Origin: Verrucomicrobiales bacterium | GTDB lineage: Bacteria; Verrucomicrobiota; Verrucomicrobiia; Verrucomicrobiales; DEV007 | NCBI GenBank assembly: GCA_028280355.1 | Contig: JANQMB010000218.1 | Span: forward strand, 1 to 32,505 | Direction of reading: 5' to 3' | Length of the DNA stretch: 32,505 bases | Shown here: positions 719-9,593 of the stretch, piece after piece | Layout: every line of letters starts with the position of its first letter | How positions within the stretch are numbered: the stretch's first letter is position 1 | Notes under the pieces: model-generated | The model's input: the letters and a program-made list of their open reading frames with translations, nothing else | Databases searched by the model: none | What the model was told of the DNA's origin: nothing | Made by a program: the position numbers and the translations under genes

Positions 719-3112
719 ATGGAACCCTCCGCCTCCCCCGGCGCCAAAGCCACCATCGAGTTCGACGACCGCACGCCGCGGCTGTTCCTGATCGCCACGG
801 TCGTCTGGGCGCTGGTGGCGATGGCGGTCGGCACCCTGGTCGCCTCCCAGCTCAACTGGTGGAAGATGAACTTCGACCTGGAGTGGTTGACCTTCGGCCG
901 CCTCCGGCCGCTGCATACCAACGCCGCCATCTTCGCCTTCGTCGGCAACATGATGTTCGCCGGCATCTACTACTCCACCCAGCGGCTGTGCAAGTGCCGC
1001 ACCGCCAGCGACCGGCTCTCCAAGATCCACTTCTGGGGCTGGCAGCTGATCATCGTCGCCGCGGCGATCACCCTCCCGCTCGGGCTGACCCGCGGCCACG
1101 AGTACGCGGAGCTCATCTGGCCGATCAACATCGCGGTGGCCGCGGTGTGGGTGGTCTTCGGGGTCAACTTCTTCTGGACCCTGGCGAGGCGCAACGAGCG
1201 CTCGCTCTACGTCGCGCTGTGGTTCTACATCGCCACGATCATCACGGTGGCGATGCTCTACATCGTCAACCACCTGCAGATCCCGACGAGCTGGACGCAC
1301 GCCTACCCCGTGTTCGGCGGGGTGCAGGGGGCGCTGGTGCAGTGGTGGTACGGGCACAACGCCGTCGCCTTCTTCCTCACCACGCCCATCCTCGGGATCA
1401 TGTATTACTACCTGCCGAAGGCGGCGGGGCGCCCGGTCTACTCCTACCGGCTGTCGATCGTCCATTTCTGGTCGCTGGTGTTCATCTATATCTGGGCCGG
1501 CCCGCACCACCTGCTCAACACCGACCTGCCGAAGTGGCTGCAGCTGCTCGGCATGTTCTTCAGCCTGATGCTCTGGGCGCCGAGTTGGGGCGGCATGCTC
1601 AACGGCCTGCTGACGCTGCGCGGCGCCTGGCACAAGCTGCGCACCGACCCGGTGATCAAGTTCTTCGCCGTCGCCGTCACCTTCTACGGCATGGCCACCT
1701 TCGAGGGGCCGCTGCTCTCGATCCGCTCCGTGAACGCGCTCTCGCACTACACCGACTGGACGATCGGCCACGTGCACAGCGGCACGCTCGGCTGGAACGG
1801 CTTCATGGCCGCCGGCCTGATCTACTGGATGGCCCCCAAGCTCTGGGGGACGAAGCTCTACTCGAAGAACCTCGCCAACATCCACTTCTGGCTCGGCCTG
1901 GTCGGCATCCTCCTCTACGTGGCCGCGATGTGGGTCTCGGGCATCATGCAGGGCCTGCTGCTCAACGCGACCAAGGAGGGCGGCACCCTGCTCGTCTACC
2001 CCGAGTTCGTCGAGACTATCCAGAAGATCCAGCTGCCGATGTTCGCCCGCCTCTGCGGCGGCCTGCTCTACCTCGTCGGGTTCGTCCTGCTCGCCTACAA
2101 CTTCTTCATGACCGTCCGCCAGGGCAAGCCGGTCGACGAGACCCGCGAGGTCGTGCTGCTCGAGCGGGGCAGGGGGCGGCGCGGGCACGACACGATGACG
2201 TTCTCGGAGACCTTCCGCAACGACCCGGTGGTCTACACCCTGCTCGGCGTGCTCTTCATGCTGCTGTGGTTCTTCATGCCACCCTACGGCAACCTCGCCG
2301 CGCTCGCCGTCGCGCTCACCCTCAGCTACATGGCGGTGCAGAAGTTCCAGGCCGGCCACGGCGCCTGGTCGAGGTGGTACGACCGGCTGCTGGAGAACTG
2401 GATGCCGTTCAGCATCCTGACCTTCGTCGCCGTCGCCATCGGCGGCGCTGTGCAGATCATCCCGGCGGTCACCGTCAACGCGGCCAAGAACATCGAGGGG
2501 CACCTGCAGACGCCCTACACGCCGCTCGAGCTGGCCGGGCGCGACATCTACGTGGCCGAGGGTTGCTACAACTGCCACTCGCAGATGGTGCGAACGCTGG
2601 TCAGGGAGGTCCAGCGTTACGGCGACTACTCGCGCATCGGCGACTCGATCTACGACCACCCGGTCCAGTGGGGCTCGAAACGCAGCGGCCCCGACCTCGC
2701 GCACGAGGGCGGCAAGCGCTCGCACGGCTGGCACTACAACCACATGCTCGACCCGCGCATGATCGAGGGCTCCACCATGCCGCGCTACCCCTGGCTGTTC
2801 GAGAAGAAGGCCGACTTCAAGTCGCTGCCGAAGAAGATCGCCGTCATGCGCCGGCTCGGCGTCCCCTACGAGCCGATGACCGCCAACGTCATCCGCGACA
2901 AGGCGGAGAGGCAGGCGCTGGAGATCGCCAAGACCTTGCGCGAGGACGACAAGATCTTCATCGAGCACGACAGGCAGATCGTCGCCCTCATCGCCTACCT
3001 CCAGAAGCTCGGCACCTACGAGGACGTCGAGGGGGAGGGCGGGGGTACCCCGGGCCTCCTCAAACCCGACGTCCCCGACAACTACCGCGGCCCCAAGGTC
3101 TCGGCACGCTAG
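719..3112 (+). CDS. ccoNO: Fused cbb3-type cytochrome c oxidase subunits I and II (CcoN-CcoO)
   Basis: A 797-residue inner-membrane protein joining the catalytic subunit CcoN (about 1-475) to the membrane-anchored cytochrome c subunit CcoO (about 555-797). It reduces O2 to water and conserves energy as a proton gradient. Haem ligands are H66 (LHTN), H351 and H353 (GHVHSG). The copper-B ligands are H213 (WYGHN), H263 and H264 (WAGPHH), and Y257 lies at the spacing of the His-Tyr cross-link of cbb3 enzymes. The CcoO part has one haem c site, C616-YN-C619-H620, and a likely axial Met in STMPRYPW. The linker (about 500-545) holds two extra hydrophobic helices before the usual CcoO anchor. CcoNO fusions are known in Bacteroidota and PVC bacteria. 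The ATG at 719 gives a complete N-terminus. Confidence 0.95.
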   Translation: MEPSASPGAKATIEFDDRTPRLFLIATVVWALVAMAVGTLVASQLNWWKMNFDLEWLTFGRLRPLHTNAAIFAFVGNMMFAGIYYSTQRLCKCRTASDRLSKIHFWGWQLIIVAAAITLPLGLTRGHEYAELIWPINIAVAAVWVVFGVNFFWTLARRNERSLYVALWFYIATIITVAMLYIVNHLQIPTSWTHAYPVFGGVQGALVQWWYGHNAVAFFLTTPILGIMYYYLPKAAGRPVYSYRLSIVHFWSLVFIYIWAGPHHLLNTDLPKWLQLLGMFFSLMLWAPSWGGMLNGLLTLRGAWHKLRTDPVIKFFAVAVTFYGMATFEGPLLSIRSVNALSHYTDWTIGHVHSGTLGWNGFMAAGLIYWMAPKLWGTKLYSKNLANIHFWLGLVGILLYVAAMWVSGIMQGLLLNATKEGGTLLVYPEFVETIQKIQLPMFARLCGGLLYLVGFVLLAYNFFMTVRQGKPVDETREVVLLERGRGRRGHDTMTFSETFRNDPVVYTLLGVLFMLLWFFMPPYGNLAALAVALTLSYMAVQKFQAGHGAWSRWYDRLLENWMPFSILTFVAVAIGGAVQIIPAVTVNAAKNIEGHLQTPYTPLELAGRDIYVAEGCYNCHSQMVRTLVREVQRYGDYSRIGDSIYDHPVQWGSKRSGPDLAHEGGKRSHGWHYNHMLDPRMIEGSTMPRYPWLFEKKADFKSLPKKIAVMRRLGVPYEPMTANVIRDKAERQALEIAKTLREDDKIFIEHDRQIVALIAYLQKLGTYEDVEGEGGGTPGLLKPDVPDNYRGPKVSAR

Positions 3113-3143: not shown

Positions 3144-3335
3144 ATGTTCAAACGACTCGAACTCGAAACGTGGCACGAGGTGCTACCCGCCGTGGGTTTC
3201 GCGCTGACCGCGGCGGTGTTCCTCGTCGCCATCGCCCGCGCGCTGATGCTCAAGCGCGAGGACGCCGACCGGCTCGCCGCGCTCCCGCTCGACACCGGGC
3301 GCCCCCAGGCCCAGCGCCCCAAGAACGATGAGTGA
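3144..3335 (+). CDS. ccoQ: CcoQ-like small membrane subunit
   Basis: A 63-residue protein with one membrane helix (about residues 13-34) and a basic, hydrophilic tail. It lies between ccoNO and ccoP, the usual place of ccoQ, and its last 8 nt overlap the start of ccoP. CcoQ proteins are short single-helix polypeptides that stabilise the cbb3 complex and are poorly conserved in sequence. The call therefore rests on size, topology and position. The gap to ccoNO is 31 nt. Confidence 0.6.
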   Translation: MFKRLELETWHEVLPAVGFALTAAVFLVAIARALMLKREDADRLAALPLDTGRPQAQRPKNDE

Positions 3336-3942
3336 ACCCGGCGAAACCCCAGAGGCGCTCGACCCCTACGCCGACAACCCGGACGTCGTCCTGCGCGAGC
3401 ACAGCTACGACGGCATCCAGGAGTATGACCAGAAGCTGCCCAACTGGTGGCTCTGGACGCTCTACATCTTCATCATCGTCTTCATCGGCTACTGGGTGCT
3501 CTACTACCAGCTGGGCTTCTTCCCCTCCGACTACGAGCGGGTCGACGAGCAGTGGGCTGAGATCGAGGCCGCCAAGGCGGCGAAGCTGCAGGAGCTCATG
3601 GGTTCGCTCGACGACCACGTCCTGTGGCAGATGAGCCGCAATGGCCAGATCACCGGGAGGGGGGAATCGGCGTTCAACATCGCCTGCGCCTCCTGCCACG
3701 CCCCCGATCTCGGCGGCAGCAACTCCGGCCCCCAGTACGTGGGGCTGCCGCTCGACGACTCCGAGTGGAAGTACGGCGGCACGCCGCTGGAGGTGATGAA
3801 GGTCGTCACCGAGGGCTCCCCGGACAAGACCAAGGGGATGATCGCGTGGAAGGAGCAGCTCGGCGGCAACCAGATCGCCGAGATCGTCGCCTATATCCTC
3901 AGCAAGCACCCCGTCCCCGAGGGGGTGGACATCGATGGCTGA
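3328..3942 (+). CDS. ccoP: cbb3 oxidase subunit III (CcoP), single-haem form
   Basis: A 204-residue membrane-anchored cytochrome c that passes electrons to the CcoNO core. The N-terminal region carries the CcoP signature YDGIQEYDQKLPNWWLWTLY (residues 27-46), which runs into the membrane helix (about 41-60). One haem c motif follows, C120-AS-C123-H124, with a likely axial ligand M171 in KGMIAWK. Proteobacterial CcoP is about 300 residues and has two haem sites. This protein is shorter and has one, a form also seen in other phyla. It overlaps ccoQ by 8 nt upstream, and its 3' end overlaps the next gene by 8 nt, so that next gene is almost certainly in the same transcript. Confidence 0.93.
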   Translation: MSEPGETPEALDPYADNPDVVLREHSYDGIQEYDQKLPNWWLWTLYIFIIVFIGYWVLYYQLGFFPSDYERVDEQWAEIEAAKAAKLQELMGSLDDHVLWQMSRNGQITGRGESAFNIACASCHAPDLGGSNSGPQYVGLPLDDSEWKYGGTPLEVMKVVTEGSPDKTKGMIAWKEQLGGNQIAEIVAYILSKHPVPEGVDIDG

Positions 3943-4429
3943 GGCGCGCAGCGGGCGGGGGGCCATCGCGGGGGCGGCGGGCGCCTTCGTGCGGCACCCG
4001 CTCGGCCAGCTGTTCATCTTCCTGCTGTTCCTCTACCAGGTGAAGGAGTTCTACCCCTTCACCCACGTCCCGATGTACTCGGACCCGGAGGCTAGGGCCC
4101 CCTATCTCTACCTGGCCGACGGCGACGGCAGGGCGCTCCCGGTGCGCTCCCACTGTGGTGTCACCAACCCGAAGCTGCGGAAGATGTACCGCAGCCGCCT
4201 CGGCAACCGTTGTGCGGAGGACGGTCTGGACAAGAAGCACCCGCCGGCCGACGTGGTGCGGGAGGTGGCGGACGAGGTGTTCGCCTTCCTGCGCGAGCGC
4301 GCCGAGGTCCGCGGGCGCCCGCTGCCCGAGGGGCTGCAGATCATGCATGTGCTGATCGAGCCCGCGCCGGCGCCCGACGGCTTCAAGGAGACCACCACCC
4401 TGCTGGTGCGCAGCGCCGAACTCCGATGA
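3935..4429 (+). CDS. Small membrane protein with PFTHxPMYSD motif, copy A
   Basis: A 164-residue protein. It has one N-terminal membrane helix (about 21-36), then FYPFTHVPMYSD at 39-50, then a soluble domain of about 110 residues that probably faces the periplasm and contains two cysteines. I do not know a characterised family. The protein at 5371-5853 has the same layout and motif and is a paralogue. Translation starts inside the last codons of ccoP (8-nt overlap), and its stop overlaps the next start as ATGA. It is therefore coupled to the oxidase operon on one side and to a multi-pass membrane protein on the other. A role in cbb3 assembly or in electron or cofactor supply is suggested by position only. 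Confidence 0.8.
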   Translation: MAEARSGRGAIAGAAGAFVRHPLGQLFIFLLFLYQVKEFYPFTHVPMYSDPEARAPYLYLADGDGRALPVRSHCGVTNPKLRKMYRSRLGNRCAEDGLDKKHPPADVVREVADEVFAFLRERAEVRGRPLPEGLQIMHVLIEPAPAPDGFKETTTLLVRSAELR

Positions 4430-5367
4430 ACAGGCTCCGACGTTTCCTCGCCGGTTTCCACGCCCGGCCGGTCGCCGCGTGGGAGTGGCTGGTGATGCGT
4501 TGCCTGTTCGCCGGTGTCGTCTGGCTCTCCATGCCCCGCGCGAGCGATCAGATCTACTCCTCCCAGGACGCGCCGAACGGCATCGCGCACTGGGTCGACC
4601 TCACCTTCCTGGCGGGGCCCGGCGTCTACCCGGCCCTGCAGGCGGTCGTCGCCATCGCGCTCGTCCTCTACGCCGCCGGCCTCTTGCTGCCCGCCGTCCT
4701 GCCCCTCCTTCTCGTCAGCCATGTCATGGTGCGGACGCTGTTCAACTCCCAGGGTTGGATCCACCACGGCGTGCAGATGGTCTCCCTCGTCCTGCTCGCC
4801 CAGACGGCCGTCGTCCTCACCCTCGCGGGTTACCGCCTGCTCAAAGGCCGGCGTCTCGAACTGCGCCCCGGGACGACGCCGGCGAGCTACCTCTTGTTCT
4901 ACTCGCAGATGGCGGTCGTCTCGCTGTACGTCGTCTCCGTGTTCTCGAAGGTCGACCGGTCCGACGGGCTCTGGTTCGCCAAGAGCCACTACGTCGGCCT
5001 ACACGTGGTGAAGGCCGAGCGCGACCGCTACCACGCCGCGCTCGAACCGCCCGGACCTGGGGACGTCCCGGCCGCGCGGCTCGTGCTCGCCCACCCCAAC
5101 CTGAGCCGGCTGTTCCTCGGTGCCGGCGTGGCCCTTGAGTTCTTCGCCTTCCTGGCGCTCCGCGGGCGCCTCTGGGCGCTGGGGGTCGGGCTCGGTCTGA
5201 TCGGCTTCCACCGGTGCATCGCGGCGCTGATGACGATCCATTTCCACTTCAACGAGATGCTGTTGGCGATCTTCTTGATCAACGTCCCCTACTGGACCGC
5301 GCGCGCCTCTGGCCGTCTGCCGGGCGTGGGCGGCACCGCGCCTGAACCCGCCGCGTCGTCCGCCTGA
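4426..5367 (+). CDS. HTTM/VKGC-like multi-pass membrane protein, copy A
   Basis: A 313-residue protein with about six to eight hydrophobic segments. It shares landmarks with the protein at 5850-6755: VDLTFLAGPGVYP (57-69), NSQG followed by a His and then SLVLLAQ (107-126), and a C-terminal segment GFHR...HFHFNEMLLAIF with H262, H272 and H274. That C-terminal pattern, a His-rich turn before a final hydrophobic helix ending NVPYW, resembles the HTTM domain related to vitamin-K-dependent gamma-carboxylase. The resemblance is from memory of the fold pattern and is tentative. The ATG at 4426 overlaps the preceding stop (ATGA), and the next gene begins 3 nt after this stop. Substrate and reaction are unknown. 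Confidence 0.75.
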   Translation: MNRLRRFLAGFHARPVAAWEWLVMRCLFAGVVWLSMPRASDQIYSSQDAPNGIAHWVDLTFLAGPGVYPALQAVVAIALVLYAAGLLLPAVLPLLLVSHVMVRTLFNSQGWIHHGVQMVSLVLLAQTAVVLTLAGYRLLKGRRLELRPGTTPASYLLFYSQMAVVSLYVVSVFSKVDRSDGLWFAKSHYVGLHVVKAERDRYHAALEPPGPGDVPAARLVLAHPNLSRLFLGAGVALEFFAFLALRGRLWALGVGLGLIGFHRCIAALMTIHFHFNEMLLAIFLINVPYWTARASGRLPGVGGTAPEPAASSA

Positions 5368-5370
5368 ACG

Positions 5371-5853
5371 ATGTCTCGCCGACTTCTAGGGAAGGTCGCG
5401 CCCCTCGGCATCTTCGTCGCGCTCACCGCGCTCTGCCTCGCCCTGAAAGAGAACTTCCCGTTCACCCACTACCCGATGTACTCGGATTTCTCTGACCAGA
5501 GCTACTACGTGTGGATCGGCGATGCCGAGGGGGAGCCGATCGCGATCCAGAACCTCACCGGCTTGCGCACGGGCAGGATCAAGAAGGTCTACAACAACGG
5601 CCTGCAGGCCGTCCGCGCGGAGGTGCGGAGGCAGACGGGTAGCGCCCCGCGCAAGCGCGACCTCACCGCCGAACAACGCCGGGCGCCCGGCGGTGAGACG
5701 CTCGCGTGGCTCGTCGGCGCCGCGCCGGACGGTGCGCTGCCGGCATTGCGCGCGGCTTCGCCGCTGCGTCTCTACCAGGTCGATATCACCATCGACCGCG
5801 GCCGCGTCGTCGAGTCCGAGCCGCTGTCGATCGCCGAGTTCGCCGTGCCATGA
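5371..5853 (+). CDS. Small membrane protein with PFTHxPMYSD motif, copy B
   Basis: A 160-residue paralogue of the protein at 3935-4429. The N-terminal helix is at about 9-25, and NFPFTHYPMYSD at 28-39 repeats the copy A motif at the same distance from the helix. A basic soluble domain follows (about 45-160). Outside the motif, similarity is visible only in layout: a 'Y.W/YL.D..G' strand after the motif and a 'RxxKxY/MY' segment further on (GRIKKVYNN here, KLRKMYRSR in copy A). Its stop overlaps the start of the partner membrane protein as ATGA, exactly as in copy A. The function is unknown. The pairing with a VKGC/HTTM-like partner in both copies suggests the two proteins form a complex. Confidence 0.78.
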   Translation: MSRRLLGKVAPLGIFVALTALCLALKENFPFTHYPMYSDFSDQSYYVWIGDAEGEPIAIQNLTGLRTGRIKKVYNNGLQAVRAEVRRQTGSAPRKRDLTAEQRRAPGGETLAWLVGAAPDGALPALRAASPLRLYQVDITIDRGRVVESEPLSIAEFAVP

Positions 5854-6755
5854 GCAGCGCGACATGTCCCTGGTTTGCCCCGCCCGAGATCGGGCGGCCG
5901 GCGTCGGCTCTCATCCGGGCGTCCTTCGCCCTGTTGGTCTGGCACACGGTCCCCGGGGGGATGGGGTTGGAGAGCCAGCCTCACCCGGTGGGCATCGCCC
6001 GCCTGTTCGACCTCACCTTCCTGTCCGACCCCGGGGTGCTCCCGGCGGTGAAGGCGGCCCTCGTCCCCGTGCTGTTGCTCTACGTCAGCGGTTTCTGGGC
6101 GCCGCTCGCGACAGGCCTGATGCTCGCCGCCACCGTCCTCCCCGGCACGCTCGACAACTCCCAGGGCTCCACCCAGCACAGCCAGCAGATCATCTCGCTG
6201 ATCCTGCTCGCACAGTTCCTCTACCACCTCTGGGCGGCGGCGTTTCCGCAGCGCCATCCGGATCGCGCGCAGCGGGAGCGCTGGTCGGTGTTCGCGGCGC
6301 AACAGGCGATCGTCGCCGCCTACACGGTCACCGCCCTCACCAAGCTGCTCCGCTCTGGGATCGGCTGGATCTCCGATTCGGCCAACTTCCCCATCCAGAT
6401 GGTGAAGAACATCCGCATGGAGTTCTACAACACGCTCCAGCCCGAAGCCGTCAGCGGCTTCTGGGGGTCGACTTCAGCGTTCGCCCAACGCCTGTTCCTC
6501 GAGTCGCCGGCGCTCTGTCGCGTGCTGCTCACCTGCGGGCTCGCCCTCGAACTGTTCGCCGTGCTGGCGCTGCTCGGCCGCCGCTGGGCAGCCCTCTACG
6601 GCGCGGCCTTGATCGCGTTCCACGTCCTCGTCCGCACCATGACAGGGCTCAACTTCCGCTTCCACATCGCCGCGCTGTTCATCTTTCTCGTCCTGCCATG
6701 GCTGATGTCGCTGCGGTTTCGACGCCCGGCCGGCAACACGCCCGCCGCTGCGTAA
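5850..6755 (+). CDS. HTTM/VKGC-like multi-pass membrane protein, copy B
   Basis: A 301-residue membrane protein paralogous to the one at 4426-5367. Matching landmarks are FDLTFLSDPGVLPAV (53-67), DNSQG...HSQQIISLILLAQ (102-122), a soluble segment MVKNIRMEFYNTL (184-196; copy A has VVKAERDRYHAAL), and the C-terminal AFHVL...NFRFHIAALFIF with H258 and H272. H272 and the NSQG-x3-His element are shared by both copies and are the best candidates for functional residues. The ATG at 5850 overlaps the preceding stop by 4 nt. The gene ends the cassette and probably the oxidase operon, because a convergent gene follows. A strong hairpin lies at 6791-6832. Confidence 0.75.
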   Translation: MSSATCPWFAPPEIGRPASALIRASFALLVWHTVPGGMGLESQPHPVGIARLFDLTFLSDPGVLPAVKAALVPVLLLYVSGFWAPLATGLMLAATVLPGTLDNSQGSTQHSQQIISLILLAQFLYHLWAAAFPQRHPDRAQRERWSVFAAQQAIVAAYTVTALTKLLRSGIGWISDSANFPIQMVKNIRMEFYNTLQPEAVSGFWGSTSAFAQRLFLESPALCRVLLTCGLALELFAVLALLGRRWAALYGAALIAFHVLVRTMTGLNFRFHIAALFIFLVLPWLMSLRFRRPAGNTPAAA

Positions 6756-6896: not shown

Positions 6897-7856
6897 TCAG
6901 AAGCGGATCGTCGCGTCCACGGTCAGGCGCGACTCCATCAAGTTTTCCTTCTCGTCGGTGAGCGGGAACTCGTAGGCCACGCCGAGGTCGATCCCGTCGG
7001 TGAGCCGGTAGCGGAAGCCGACCCCCATCGTGACGAGGTCTCGCGCGAGATTCGCGTTCGAAGCCCCCAAGTTCACGAGGTCGCCGCCCTCGAAGGCCGC
7101 GACCCCAGGGACCAGGCCCCCCACATGTCTATTGAAACGGCGCCCGCCATCACCCTCGTCGAGCACCCGGAAGTAACTGGCCTCGATCAGGGGAAACAGG
7201 CGGTCGGTGAGCGCGTAGCTTACGTGGACGTTGTAGTGCAACATGGTGCTCTCGGCACCGCTGTCGAACGGGATCCGGAGCCCCAGGTTCTCCGCCAGCT
7301 GCCAGCGCTGCCACACCTTGAGGAACGAGAGCGAGGGGATGGCGACGCCGTCGCCGCTGCCCTGCATGACGTCAGTGTTGCCCGTCGGCACCTCGACCTG
7401 GAGGTTGACCGCCGCTGCGAGCCCGGTTTCAGGCCGGTATAGGAACGCGTATTTGAAGCCGGCTGACAGGTTCGCCCAACCGTCTGCGTCGGCGAGCGTC
7501 GCGTCGGGCGAGAGGTTGATGTAGCCGTCCTTCGCGGCGACGAGCGAGAAGCGTTCGCCCAAGGCCAGTTCGAGCTGGAGGGCGTAGACTTGTAGATCGC
7601 CGCCGACCGGAAGGTCGCCGAGCACTGTGCGCACACTGTTGGGCAGCGACTGGTACATGAACAGCGGGTGGACCTGCGACCGCGGGACGGGCAGGTCGAA
7701 CAGCGTCGGGCTGGTGATCGGCCGGATCGCGCGATCGAACAGGGAGACGCTCTCGTCGGAGAGTGGCGGGGGTGGCTGGGTATCTCCGCCTGCGGCGATA
7801 CCGCCAGCAGCCAGGCTGGCGAGCAAGGCGGTCCTTAGGGGCTTTGGTGTTGTCAT
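6897..7856 (-). CDS. Predicted outer-membrane beta-barrel protein
   Basis: A 319-residue exported protein. I chose the ATG at 7856, which gives a basic N-terminus (MTTPKPLRT) and a hydrophobic signal stretch to about residue 22. The frame stays open upstream, but the added residues would spoil the signal. The mature part alternates hydrophobic and polar residues and is rich in Gly, Tyr and Asn. It ends in RLTVDATIRF, whose terminal Phe is typical of barrels inserted by BamA. It resembles proteins annotated as transporter/MetA-pathway outer-membrane proteins (for example LQVEVPTGN, a segment common in them). Substrate is unknown. It is convergent to the duplicated cassette and divergent from ccoG. 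Confidence 0.65.
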   Translation of the reverse strand: MTTPKPLRTALLASLAAGGIAAGGDTQPPPPLSDESVSLFDRAIRPITSPTLFDLPVPRSQVHPLFMYQSLPNSVRTVLGDLPVGGDLQVYALQLELALGERFSLVAAKDGYINLSPDATLADADGWANLSAGFKYAFLYRPETGLAAAVNLQVEVPTGNTDVMQGSGDGVAIPSLSFLKVWQRWQLAENLGLRIPFDSGAESTMLHYNVHVSYALTDRLFPLIEASYFRVLDEGDGGRRFNRHVGGLVPGVAAFEGGDLVNLGASNANLARDLVTMGVGFRYRLTDGIDLGVAYEFPLTDEKENLMESRLTVDATIRF

Positions 7857-8156
7857 GGTGGTTGTTGGTCCAGGTCTGGTTGTTGGTCTGATCCCCCGGC
7901 CGATCCCCACCTTCTGGCGGGGTCGGGCGCTGGGGGGAGCGCTCGGCTCCACCCCAAAACTACGCCCCCAAAAGGCCGCCGCCCCGCATCGGGTGCGGAT
8001 GATTGCGCATCCTATGCCCCCAGTTCCAGGCAGAGGCCCCCCTCCCGGCCGCGCACGATTTGCCCACCCTTTCGCACGGATGGCGCGGCAAGACCCCGCC
8101 TATCAGGTAGGGTTCGGTATTCAGGGAGGCCGCCCGGAGGCCGCCCGTCGTCCGCT
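7857..8156. other. Intergenic region between the barrel gene and ccoG
   Basis: This 300-bp divergent spacer should hold promoters for both flanking genes, but no convincing -35/-10 pair was found. It contains nested short inverted repeats: CGCA/TGCG at 7985-7997 and GGATG-N6-CATCC at 7997-8012. It also contains an 11-bp tandem repeat at 8125-8146. I found no TTGAT-N4-ATCAA site for an FNR-type regulator, which often controls cbb3 genes. Confidence 0.5.
8125..8146 (+). repeat. 11-bp tandem repeat before ccoG
   Basis: The unit GGAGGCCGCCC occurs twice without a gap (8125-8135 and 8136-8146), ending 10 nt before the ccoG ATG. Each unit includes a Shine-Dalgarno-like GGAGG. The nearer GGAGG is 16 nt from the start, further than usual for a ribosome binding site. 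Confidence 0.6.
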
Positions 8157-9593
8157 ATGCCCAAGACGCTGCCCAACCTCGTCTCCGTCACCACCATCGG
8201 GGAGGATGGGTCGCATGTCGCCGTCCACCCGGCCGACGTCGCCGGGCGGTTCACCTTCCTGCGGAGGATATTCGGCCTGCTGCTGATCGCGGTCTATGTC
8301 GCGCTGCCGTGGATCCCCGTCCGCGGCCAGCCGGCGCTGTTCTTCAACCTCGCGGAGGGGCGCTTCCATGTCTTCGGCTTCACCTTCCTCACCCACGACT
8401 TCTGGCTCGCCTTCTTCCTCGTCAGCGGCGCGGGCTTCGCCCTGTTCTACATCACCTCCCTGTTCGGGCGCCTCTGGTGCGGCTGGGCGTGCCCCTACAC
8501 GGTTTTCCTCGAGCACGTCTTCCGGCGTATCGAGCGGTGGATCGACGGTGATGCCCCGGCGCGGCGGAAGCTCGAGGGGGCGCCCTGGACGGGGGGGAAG
8601 ATCGCCAGGCGCCTGCTGAAGCACGCGCTCTACATTCTGTGCGCCGCGCTCATCGCACACGTTTTCCTCTCCTATTTCGTCAGCATCAAAGGCCTCTACG
8701 GATACATGCGACAGTCGCCGGCGGCGCACCTGAAATCCTTCGCGGCCGTCGCCTTCCTCACCGGCGTGCTCTACTTCTGCTTCGCCTGGTTCCGCGAGCA
8801 GTTCTGCATCATCCTCTGCCCCTACGGCCGCATCCAGAGCGCGCTGACCGACGACGACACCGTCGTGATCGGATACGACAGCAGGCGCGGCGAGCCGCGG
8901 GGCAAGGCGGCAGACCCCGATGCCGGGGATTGCGTCGACTGCCGGCGCTGCGTGCAGGTCTGCCCGACCGGGATCGACATCCGCAACGGCCTGCAGCTCG
9001 AGTGCATCGGCTGCGCGGCCTGCATCGACGCCTGCGACGACATCATGGACAAGGTGGGGCGCCGGCGCGGGCTGGTGCGCTATGACTCGATGAACGGCCT
9101 CGACGGCAAAAAGCGCCGCTACGTGCGGCCGCGCATCCTGCTGTACACCGCGCTGATGCTGCTCGGCGGTGGCGTGCTCGCCTTCGCGCTGACCCGCGTC
9201 CACGACGTGGAGATGACCACCACGCGCATGTCTGGGATACCCTACTTCGTCACCGACGACGCGGTGCGCAACCAGTTCAAGTTGCGCCTGTTCACCAAGC
9301 GGCCGGTCGAGACCACGTTCACCCTCGAGCTCTCGGGGGCTCCGGAGGGCGCGATCGGCGGCGGCCTCGAGGAGCCGGTCAAAGTGCCGCCGCTCGGTTC
9401 GGTCGAGCGCCCGGTCACCGTCATCATCCCCCGGGCGGTCTACGCGGGCCCGGCCGAGTTCGAGCTGCACGCGCGTGCGGAGCCGGGTGGCACCGTGCTG
9501 GTGCGCCGGCTCAAGTTCGTCGGCCCCGAGGCGCGCCTGCTCGCTGAGGATGCCGCCGATCGTGCCGCGGAGGCCGAAGAGACGACACCATGA
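8157..9593 (+). CDS. ccoG: Cytochrome c oxidase accessory protein CcoG (FixG/RdxA)
   Basis: A 478-residue inner-membrane iron-sulfur protein needed for cbb3 oxidase assembly; the family is reported to reduce Cu(II) for copper delivery. Membrane helices flank a CGWACP motif starting at C108. Two 4Fe-4S ligand sets follow, C259/C262/C265/C269 (CVDCRRCVQVCP) and C283/C286/C289/C293 (CIGCAACIDAC), and then another helix (about 327-347). The C-terminal part (350-460) is an Ig-like periplasmic domain, as in the family. Length is normal. The gene starts a chain of four genes joined by 4-nt overlaps (ccoG, small protein, SafE-like, ccoI). It is separated from ccoNOQP by the duplicated cassette and the convergent barrel gene. 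Confidence 0.95.
   Translation: MPKTLPNLVSVTTIGEDGSHVAVHPADVAGRFTFLRRIFGLLLIAVYVALPWIPVRGQPALFFNLAEGRFHVFGFTFLTHDFWLAFFLVSGAGFALFYITSLFGRLWCGWACPYTVFLEHVFRRIERWIDGDAPARRKLEGAPWTGGKIARRLLKHALYILCAALIAHVFLSYFVSIKGLYGYMRQSPAAHLKSFAAVAFLTGVLYFCFAWFREQFCIILCPYGRIQSALTDDDTVVIGYDSRRGEPRGKAADPDAGDCVDCRRCVQVCPTGIDIRNGLQLECIGCAACIDACDDIMDKVGRRRGLVRYDSMNGLDGKKRRYVRPRILLYTALMLLGGGVLAFALTRVHDVEMTTTRMSGIPYFVTDDAVRNQFKLRLFTKRPVETTFTLELSGAPEGAIGGGLEEPVKVPPLGSVERPVTVIIPRAVYAGPAEFELHARAEPGGTVLVRRLKFVGPEARLLAEDAADRAAEAEETTP

What the first reader, a model, noticed from the sequence alone, without database searches (positions are those of the whole stretch)
3935..6755. Tandemly duplicated two-gene membrane cassette inside a cbb3 oxidase operon
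Two copies of the same gene pair stand side by side. Each pair has a small one-helix protein with (F/Y)PFTHxPMYSD directly after the helix and a multi-pass protein with NSQG-x3-His...LLAQ and a C-terminal His-rich turn. In both copies the two genes overlap as ATGA. The first copy starts inside ccoP, so the cassette is wired into the oxidase transcript. The multi-pass protein looks like an HTTM/VKGC relative, a fold that in animals uses reduced quinone; a quinone-linked role beside a terminal oxidase is an attractive but unproven idea. I know of no described cbb3 component of this kind. Divergence between the copies suggests two distinct partners or substrates.
Basis: partly seen in the sequence, partly recalled or inferred. 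Interest (0 to 1): 0.8.

Follow-up and report, generated by a model that had tools for sequence, protein, structure and literature searches.

The report
Split vitamin-K-carboxylase-like membrane gene pair
Two neighbouring bacterial genes encode what looks like a vitamin K-dependent carboxylase relative split into two membrane proteins; the window carries two copies behind a respiratory-oxidase gene, but most of the roughly one hundred related pairs in other genomes lie far from respiratory genes, so it is a separate enzyme-like system of still unknown substrate rather than an oxidase part.

Summary
In detail: two A-B gene pairs (small one-helix protein A; multi-pass protein B) follow ccoP, with an 8-nt overlap into ccoP and ATGA overlaps within each pair. 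A-B is a family: in 57 related genomes (Verrucomicrobiales-type), 106 of 114 A genes are directly followed by B, A and B occur in the same 32 genomes, and their trees co-vary (r 0.72). B has no Pfam, NCBIfam or PDB hit, but profile comparison (probability 96; reversed and shuffled controls at most 3.6) and an AlphaFold model whose only credible PDB match is human GGCX place it in the HTTM / vitamin K-dependent carboxylase superfamily. The aligned GGCX residues K218, H160 and W223 are invariant in B. A ends its helix with an invariant PMY where GGCX has TM9 and the quinone-pocket Met401. One genome holds a natural B-A fusion in GGCX order. So the pair is best read as a split, menaquinol-type HTTM enzyme. 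The cbb3 link is local: 6 of 117 B genes, three genera; other ccoP-ccoG loci lack it. The two copies are separate old lineages, not a recent tandem duplication. Reaction and substrate remain unproven.

The parts
3935..4429 (+). A1: small protein, N-terminal helix then KEFYPFTHVPMYSD and a predicted beta-alpha-alpha-beta-beta periplasmic domain; Met47 is in the invariant PMY
   Evidence: overlaps ccoP by 8 nt
4426..5367 (+). B1: multi-pass HTTM/VKGC-superfamily protein; H114, K175 and W183 align with GGCX H160, K218 and W223
   Evidence: ATGA overlap with A1
5371..5853 (+). A2: second-lineage small partner (KENFPFTHYPMYSD)
5850..6755 (+). B2: second-lineage multi-pass HTTM/VKGC-superfamily protein (K165 equivalent to K175 of B1)
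   Evidence: ATGA overlap with A2
3328..3942 (+). ccoP (FixP_N plus one cytochrome c domain); host operon, not part of the cassette family
   Evidence: 8-nt overlap with A1
719..3112 (+). fused ccoN-ccoO; host operon
3144..3335 (+). ccoQ-like small protein; host operon
   Evidence: position and one helix, no over-cut-off family hit
8157..9593 (+). ccoG; lies next to ccoP in relatives that lack the cassette

Best explanation
A and B together form a split relative of the vitamin K-dependent carboxylase (VKGC/HTTM superfamily). B is the transmembrane catalytic bundle. A supplies the last helix (GGCX TM9 equivalent), the short Met-containing linker that closes the quinone pocket, and a small periplasmic substrate-side domain. 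Most likely a menaquinol is bound in B between the invariant Lys (base, K218 equivalent), His (H160) and Trp (W223), capped by the PMY linker of A, and its O2-dependent oxidation drives a modification of an envelope peptide, protein or lipid on the periplasmic face. Each of the 1-7 paralogous cassettes per genome would serve its own substrate through its own A domain. In three genera two paralogous cassettes sit behind ccoP and are probably co-expressed with the cbb3 oxidase without being part of it. Shown by computation: pairing, co-variation, superfamily membership of B, conserved residues, natural fusion. Inferred: heterodimer, quinol use, the reaction. Unknown: the substrate.
For: Pairing: 106/114 A genes directly upstream of B on the same strand; same 32/57 genomes. 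Co-variation of A and B trees r 0.72, 2000 permutations at most 0.17. B vs HTTM profile prob 91, E 9e-7 over 261 columns; vs HTTM+VKGC profile prob 96, E 3e-9, against at most 3.6 in 23 reversed/block-shuffled controls. AlphaFold model of B1 (pTM 0.67): human GGCX is the only credible PDB match (9bvo prob 1.00, TM 0.51; non-GGCX hits shown TM 0.20 or less, prob 0.15 or less). H114/K175/W183 aligned to H160/K218/W223 via the bacterial VKGC L074, which matches GGCX at 5e-45, and invariant in 51/51 pairs; A invariant P41, M47, Y48. GGCX: K218 is the base; M401 of the TM9-PBD linker, H160 and W223 line the vitamin K site (PMC12589487). Natural fusion L129: HTTM (Pfam E 1.7e-4) then helix plus REYFPLSHIPMYS, A profile E 3e-8. 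Precedents of small partner + HTTM.
Against: No member of B or A reaches a curated Pfam cut-off, and the four window proteins have no NCBIfam match. A shows no sequence similarity to the VKGC C-terminal domain, and its model has no PDB match, so its equivalence to TM9 + linker + PBD rests on order, motif and the fusion. The position aligned with GGCX N159 is not conserved. VKOR is absent from 19 of 32 cassette genomes, so an epoxide-VKOR cycle is not general. The B model is of medium confidence (4-sequence alignment, pLDDT 69.5). No substrate gene recurs in the neighbourhoods.
Confidence: 0.5

Rival explanations
1. SdpAB-like maturation pair: B and A form a membrane complex that processes, folds or exports a secreted peptide or protein without quinol chemistry, as SdpA/SdpB do for SdpC in Bacillus.
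For: Same two-gene layout (small protein + HTTM protein); small HTTMs in relatives match SdpB (4e-14, 1e-12) and have small one-helix partners with a [WF]xMF-type motif. [quoted passage not shown]
Against: No SdpA-family gene in 37 relatives; the window B proteins have no SdpB hit. B keeps a His at the GGCX H160 position, which the SdpB-like HTTMs appear to lack. No recurring third (substrate) gene next to the cassettes.
Confidence: 0.25
2. Dedicated cbb3 oxidase subunits or assembly factors.
For: ccoP-A1-B1-A2-B2 order and the 8-nt ccoP/A1 overlap are conserved in three genera (window; L033; L035).
Against: Only 6 of 117 B genes are near ccoP; 10 cassette genomes have no detected ccoP and 8 ccoP genomes have no cassette; ccoP-ccoG loci of seven relatives lack it; G007 has the orthologous tandem on another contig, away from its ccoP.
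Confidence: 0.07
3. LMF1/HTTM-like membrane thiol-redox or folding factor with no quinol chemistry.
For: The fusion L129 also weakly matches LMF1 (E 0.0038); a plasmid HTTM cassette carries a DCC thiol-disulfide oxidoreductase.
Against: No DCC/DUF393 gene was recognised beside PMYS cassettes in the loci read; no conserved cysteines in A or B.
Confidence: 0.08

Closest known systems
Human GGCX and bacterial VKGC (HTTM + TM9 + propeptide-binding domain in one chain)
   Same: Fold of B; aligned Lys, His and Trp of the vitamin K site; order bundle, helix, Met-containing linker, small domain; natural fusion L129
   Different: Two separate genes with A first; no detectable sequence identity of A to the PBD; N159 not conserved; no Arch domain; no known Glu substrate
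HTTM domain family (PF05090)
   Same: Profile-profile match over nearly the whole length of B
   Different: No window or family member scores above Pfam's cut-off; distinct signature NSQG...H...LLAQ and PnGxAxxxDLTfL
SdpA/SdpB (TIGR04034/TIGR04033)
   Same: Small protein plus HTTM-type protein as an adjacent pair
   Different: No hit of the window's A or B to either family, no SdpA family in relatives; no SdpC-like substrate gene alongside
DUF5819 + HTTM and hypothetical + HTTM + DCC cassettes (Streptomyces, Sulfitobacter plasmids)
   Same: Small partner directly upstream of, and overlapping, HTTM; aromatic-x-[MV]-F motif after a helix
   Different: Different partner families; no PMYS motif

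Membership tests
HTTM (PF05090) | Score above Pfam gathering cut-off (27.7 bits) | tested here: not met
   none of 36 B members
HTTM (PF05090) | Homology and fold of the HTTM bundle | tested here: met
   prob 91-96 versus controls at most 3.6; GGCX sole credible PDB match
Vitamin K-dependent carboxylase (GGCX/VKGC) | Single chain HTTM + TM9 + propeptide-binding domain | tested here: not met
   A and B are separate genes; fused only in the distant L129
Vitamin K-dependent carboxylase (GGCX/VKGC) | Catalytic base K218 and pocket residues H160, W223 | tested here: met
   K175, H114, W183 aligned and invariant in 51/51 pairs; H114 alignment from a low-stringency path
Vitamin K-dependent carboxylase (GGCX/VKGC) | Glu-site N159 | tested here: not met
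   aligned column (H113 in B1) varies
Vitamin K-dependent carboxylase (GGCX/VKGC) | Propeptide-binding domain | tested here: inconclusive
   no sequence or fold match for A; similar order of helix, linker, beta-alpha-alpha-beta
Vitamin K-dependent carboxylase (GGCX/VKGC) | Glu carboxylation with vitamin K epoxidation | not testable with these tools
   needs biochemistry; VKOR present in 13/32 cassette genomes and 5/25 others
SdpA/SdpB | Match to TIGR04034 / TIGR04033 | tested here: not met
SdpA/SdpB | Small partner gene adjacent to HTTM gene | tested here: met
cbb3 oxidase component | Regular presence in cco operons | tested here: not met

The most novel reading that the evidence does not exclude
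An undescribed lineage of split, two-subunit menaquinol-dependent modifying enzymes in Verrucomicrobiota, multiplied to as many as seven paralogues per genome, each with its own substrate-side subunit, with two of them coupled to expression of the cbb3 oxidase so that an O2- and quinol-dependent envelope modification follows respiration.
Probability: 0.3. Interest if true: 0.75.

Novelty: new variant of a known kind. Interest (0 to 1): 0.5.

Why it matters
Bacterial HTTM proteins are common and mostly without known function. This family shows that the carboxylase architecture can be split exactly at the TM9-linker junction, keeps the aligned quinol-site residues, and has diversified within single genomes. 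If it is an active quinol enzyme, it would reveal a whole class of envelope modifications in a large bacterial phylum and a minimal two-subunit model for the vitamin K carboxylase mechanism. It also corrects a tempting but wrong assignment to the cbb3 oxidase.

Tried and rejected
Plasmid tblastn of a B relative: none. Direct profile comparison of A with the VKGC C-terminus or with HTTM partners: not significant. Foldseek of the A model: no match. SdpA family in relatives: none. VKOR coupling: not general. Rejected: cbb3 component, recent tandem duplication. Literature searches for bacterial HTTM/VKGC function found nothing directly relevant.
Full report
Observation. A1 overlaps ccoP by 8 nt, and both pairs overlap as ATGA. 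A1/A2 and B1/B2 are homologous. No promoter-like or terminator-like site was called between ccoP and B2 (a weak scan). The host operon is a fused ccoNO, a ccoQ-like gene and ccoP, with ccoG further downstream at 8157-9593.

A family of pairs. A profile of the two B proteins finds relatives in 32 of 57 related genomes, with several copies in most. The same number of genomes hold A. After merging fragments there are 114 A and 117 B genes; 106 A genes are followed directly by B on the same strand, and most of the rest are fragments or near contig ends. The A motif is [YF]PF[ST]xxPMYS-like right after a helix; P41, M47 and Y48 are invariant in 51 of 51 unique pairs and K83 in 50. B invariants are G52, S108, H114, Y168, K175, W183, K196, E238, R248, H262 and F273. 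Distances in the A and B trees correlate (r 0.72; best of 2000 permutations 0.17). This is the pattern of two proteins that act together.

Distribution. In an even sample of 289 genomes of the phylum the B profile hits only genomes of the window's order plus one distant genome, G302. There the B-like gene (NSEGKIGHS) overlaps an upstream A-like gene (EIYPFASWFLFSLVP) by ATGA, beside glycosyltransferase-like genes. The A profile in the same sample adds G231, with an A-like plus HTTM-like pair overlapping by ATGA, and G088, a fusion.

What B is. Single-sequence and Pfam searches fail. Profile-profile comparison with HTTM proteins from relatives gives probability 91, and with HTTM plus VKGC 96, E 3e-9; 23 reversed or block-shuffled controls reach at most 3.6. 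An AlphaFold model from only four sequences (pLDDT 69.5, pTM 0.67) finds human GGCX as its only credible PDB match: probability up to 1.00 and TM about 0.5, while the non-GGCX hits shown reach at most TM 0.20 and probability 0.15. Foldseek E-values are weak (0.09 at best), so this is corroboration rather than proof.

Active site. A 496-aa VKGC homologue from a relative, L074, matches GGCX across membrane and propeptide-binding domains at 5e-45. Through it, B H114, K175 and W183 align with GGCX H160, K218 and W223 (the H114 part comes from a forced full-length path). In GGCX, K218 deprotonates vitamin K hydroquinone, and H160, W223 and M401 of the TM9-PBD linker line the vitamin K site (PMC12589487). 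A has one helix followed at once by the invariant PMY, where GGCX has TM9 followed by SWDMM containing M401, then a predicted beta-alpha-alpha-beta order. By sequence and fold search A itself is unmatched. The natural fusion in G088 supplies the missing link: one 557-aa frame with an HTTM domain, then a helix and REYFPLSHIPMYS.

The cbb3 link. Of 117 B genes, six lie within 15 kb of ccoP: the window, G005 and G011, all as the same tandem and all with an 8-nt ccoP/A1 overlap. G007 holds the orthologous tandem on a different contig from its ccoP. Seven other ccoP loci were read: in most ccoP is followed by ccoG, G007 has a universal-stress-type gene between them, and none has a cassette. In closed genomes (G040, G343, G346) cassettes and ccoP are far apart. 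Elsewhere the cassettes sit beside unrelated housekeeping genes, recognised by eye only: dxr/rseP/ispG, serS, rarA, panB, gcvP, enolase. The cassette and ccoP do co-occur more than chance across the 57 genomes (Fisher p 0.008), but relatedness among genomes was not corrected for. The insertion behind ccoP is therefore a conserved local arrangement, probably for co-expression.

The two copies. B1 is 67-68% identical to the first copies in G005, G007 and G011, 40-45% to many cassettes elsewhere, and 34% to B2. Both trees place copy 1 and copy 2 in different lineages.

Mechanism. I favour a heterodimeric menaquinol-dependent enzyme. Homology of B, pairing, conservation and fusion are shown; heterodimer and quinol use are inferred; the reaction and substrate are unknown. 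Gla formation is possible but not favoured by name, because N159 is not kept and VKOR is absent from 19 of 32 cassette genomes. An SdpAB-like maturation role is the main rival: small HTTM proteins in relatives match SdpB and have their own small partners, and SdpAB modifies SdpC (PMC6963621).

Novelty. A small partner with an HTTM protein is a known layout; the PMYS family, its invisibility to curated models, its expansion and its fusion are, as far as these tools show, undescribed. New variant of a known kind.

Noticed in passing
L037:4908-6285 (G000:C114): The window's genome also has an HTTM gene (PF05090 E 2.6e-5) with its own overlapping one-helix partner carrying WQRWEMFHSIP, a second type of small-partner/HTTM cassette.
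   Followed up: partly
L081, L083, L088, L089, L090, L092, L101: Small HTTM proteins in relatives regularly have an upstream ~180-aa partner with a [WF]xMF-type motif, often with ATGA overlap; two of the HTTMs match SdpB. DUF5819 (Streptomyces plasmid) looks like another such partner.
   Followed up: partly
L129:547-2220: Natural fusion of an HTTM domain with an A-type helix and FPLSHIPMYS; also a weak Pfam LMF1 match.
   Followed up: yes
L056:686-2175 (G302): Distant A-B-like pair (EIYPFASWFLFS / NSEGKIGHS) with ATGA overlap beside glycosyltransferase-like genes; may mark a wider superfamily.
   Followed up: partly
window 3328-3942: This ccoP is short (204 aa) and shows a single CxxCH (CASCH), whereas classical CcoP is dihaem.
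   Followed up: no
window 6897-7952 (-): Opposite-strand outer-membrane protein gene (Phenol_MetA_deg, E 6e-10) lies between the cassettes and ccoG.
   Followed up: no
G010:C205, G012:C30, G015:C10, G023:C458, G029:C231, G035:C34: Cassettes of two lineages arranged head to head (B-A / A-B divergent) recur in six genomes.
   Followed up: no
L039, L107, L108: Conserved microsynteny Rrf2-like regulator - A - B - RarA-like ATPase in three genomes (neighbours identified by eye only).
   Followed up: no
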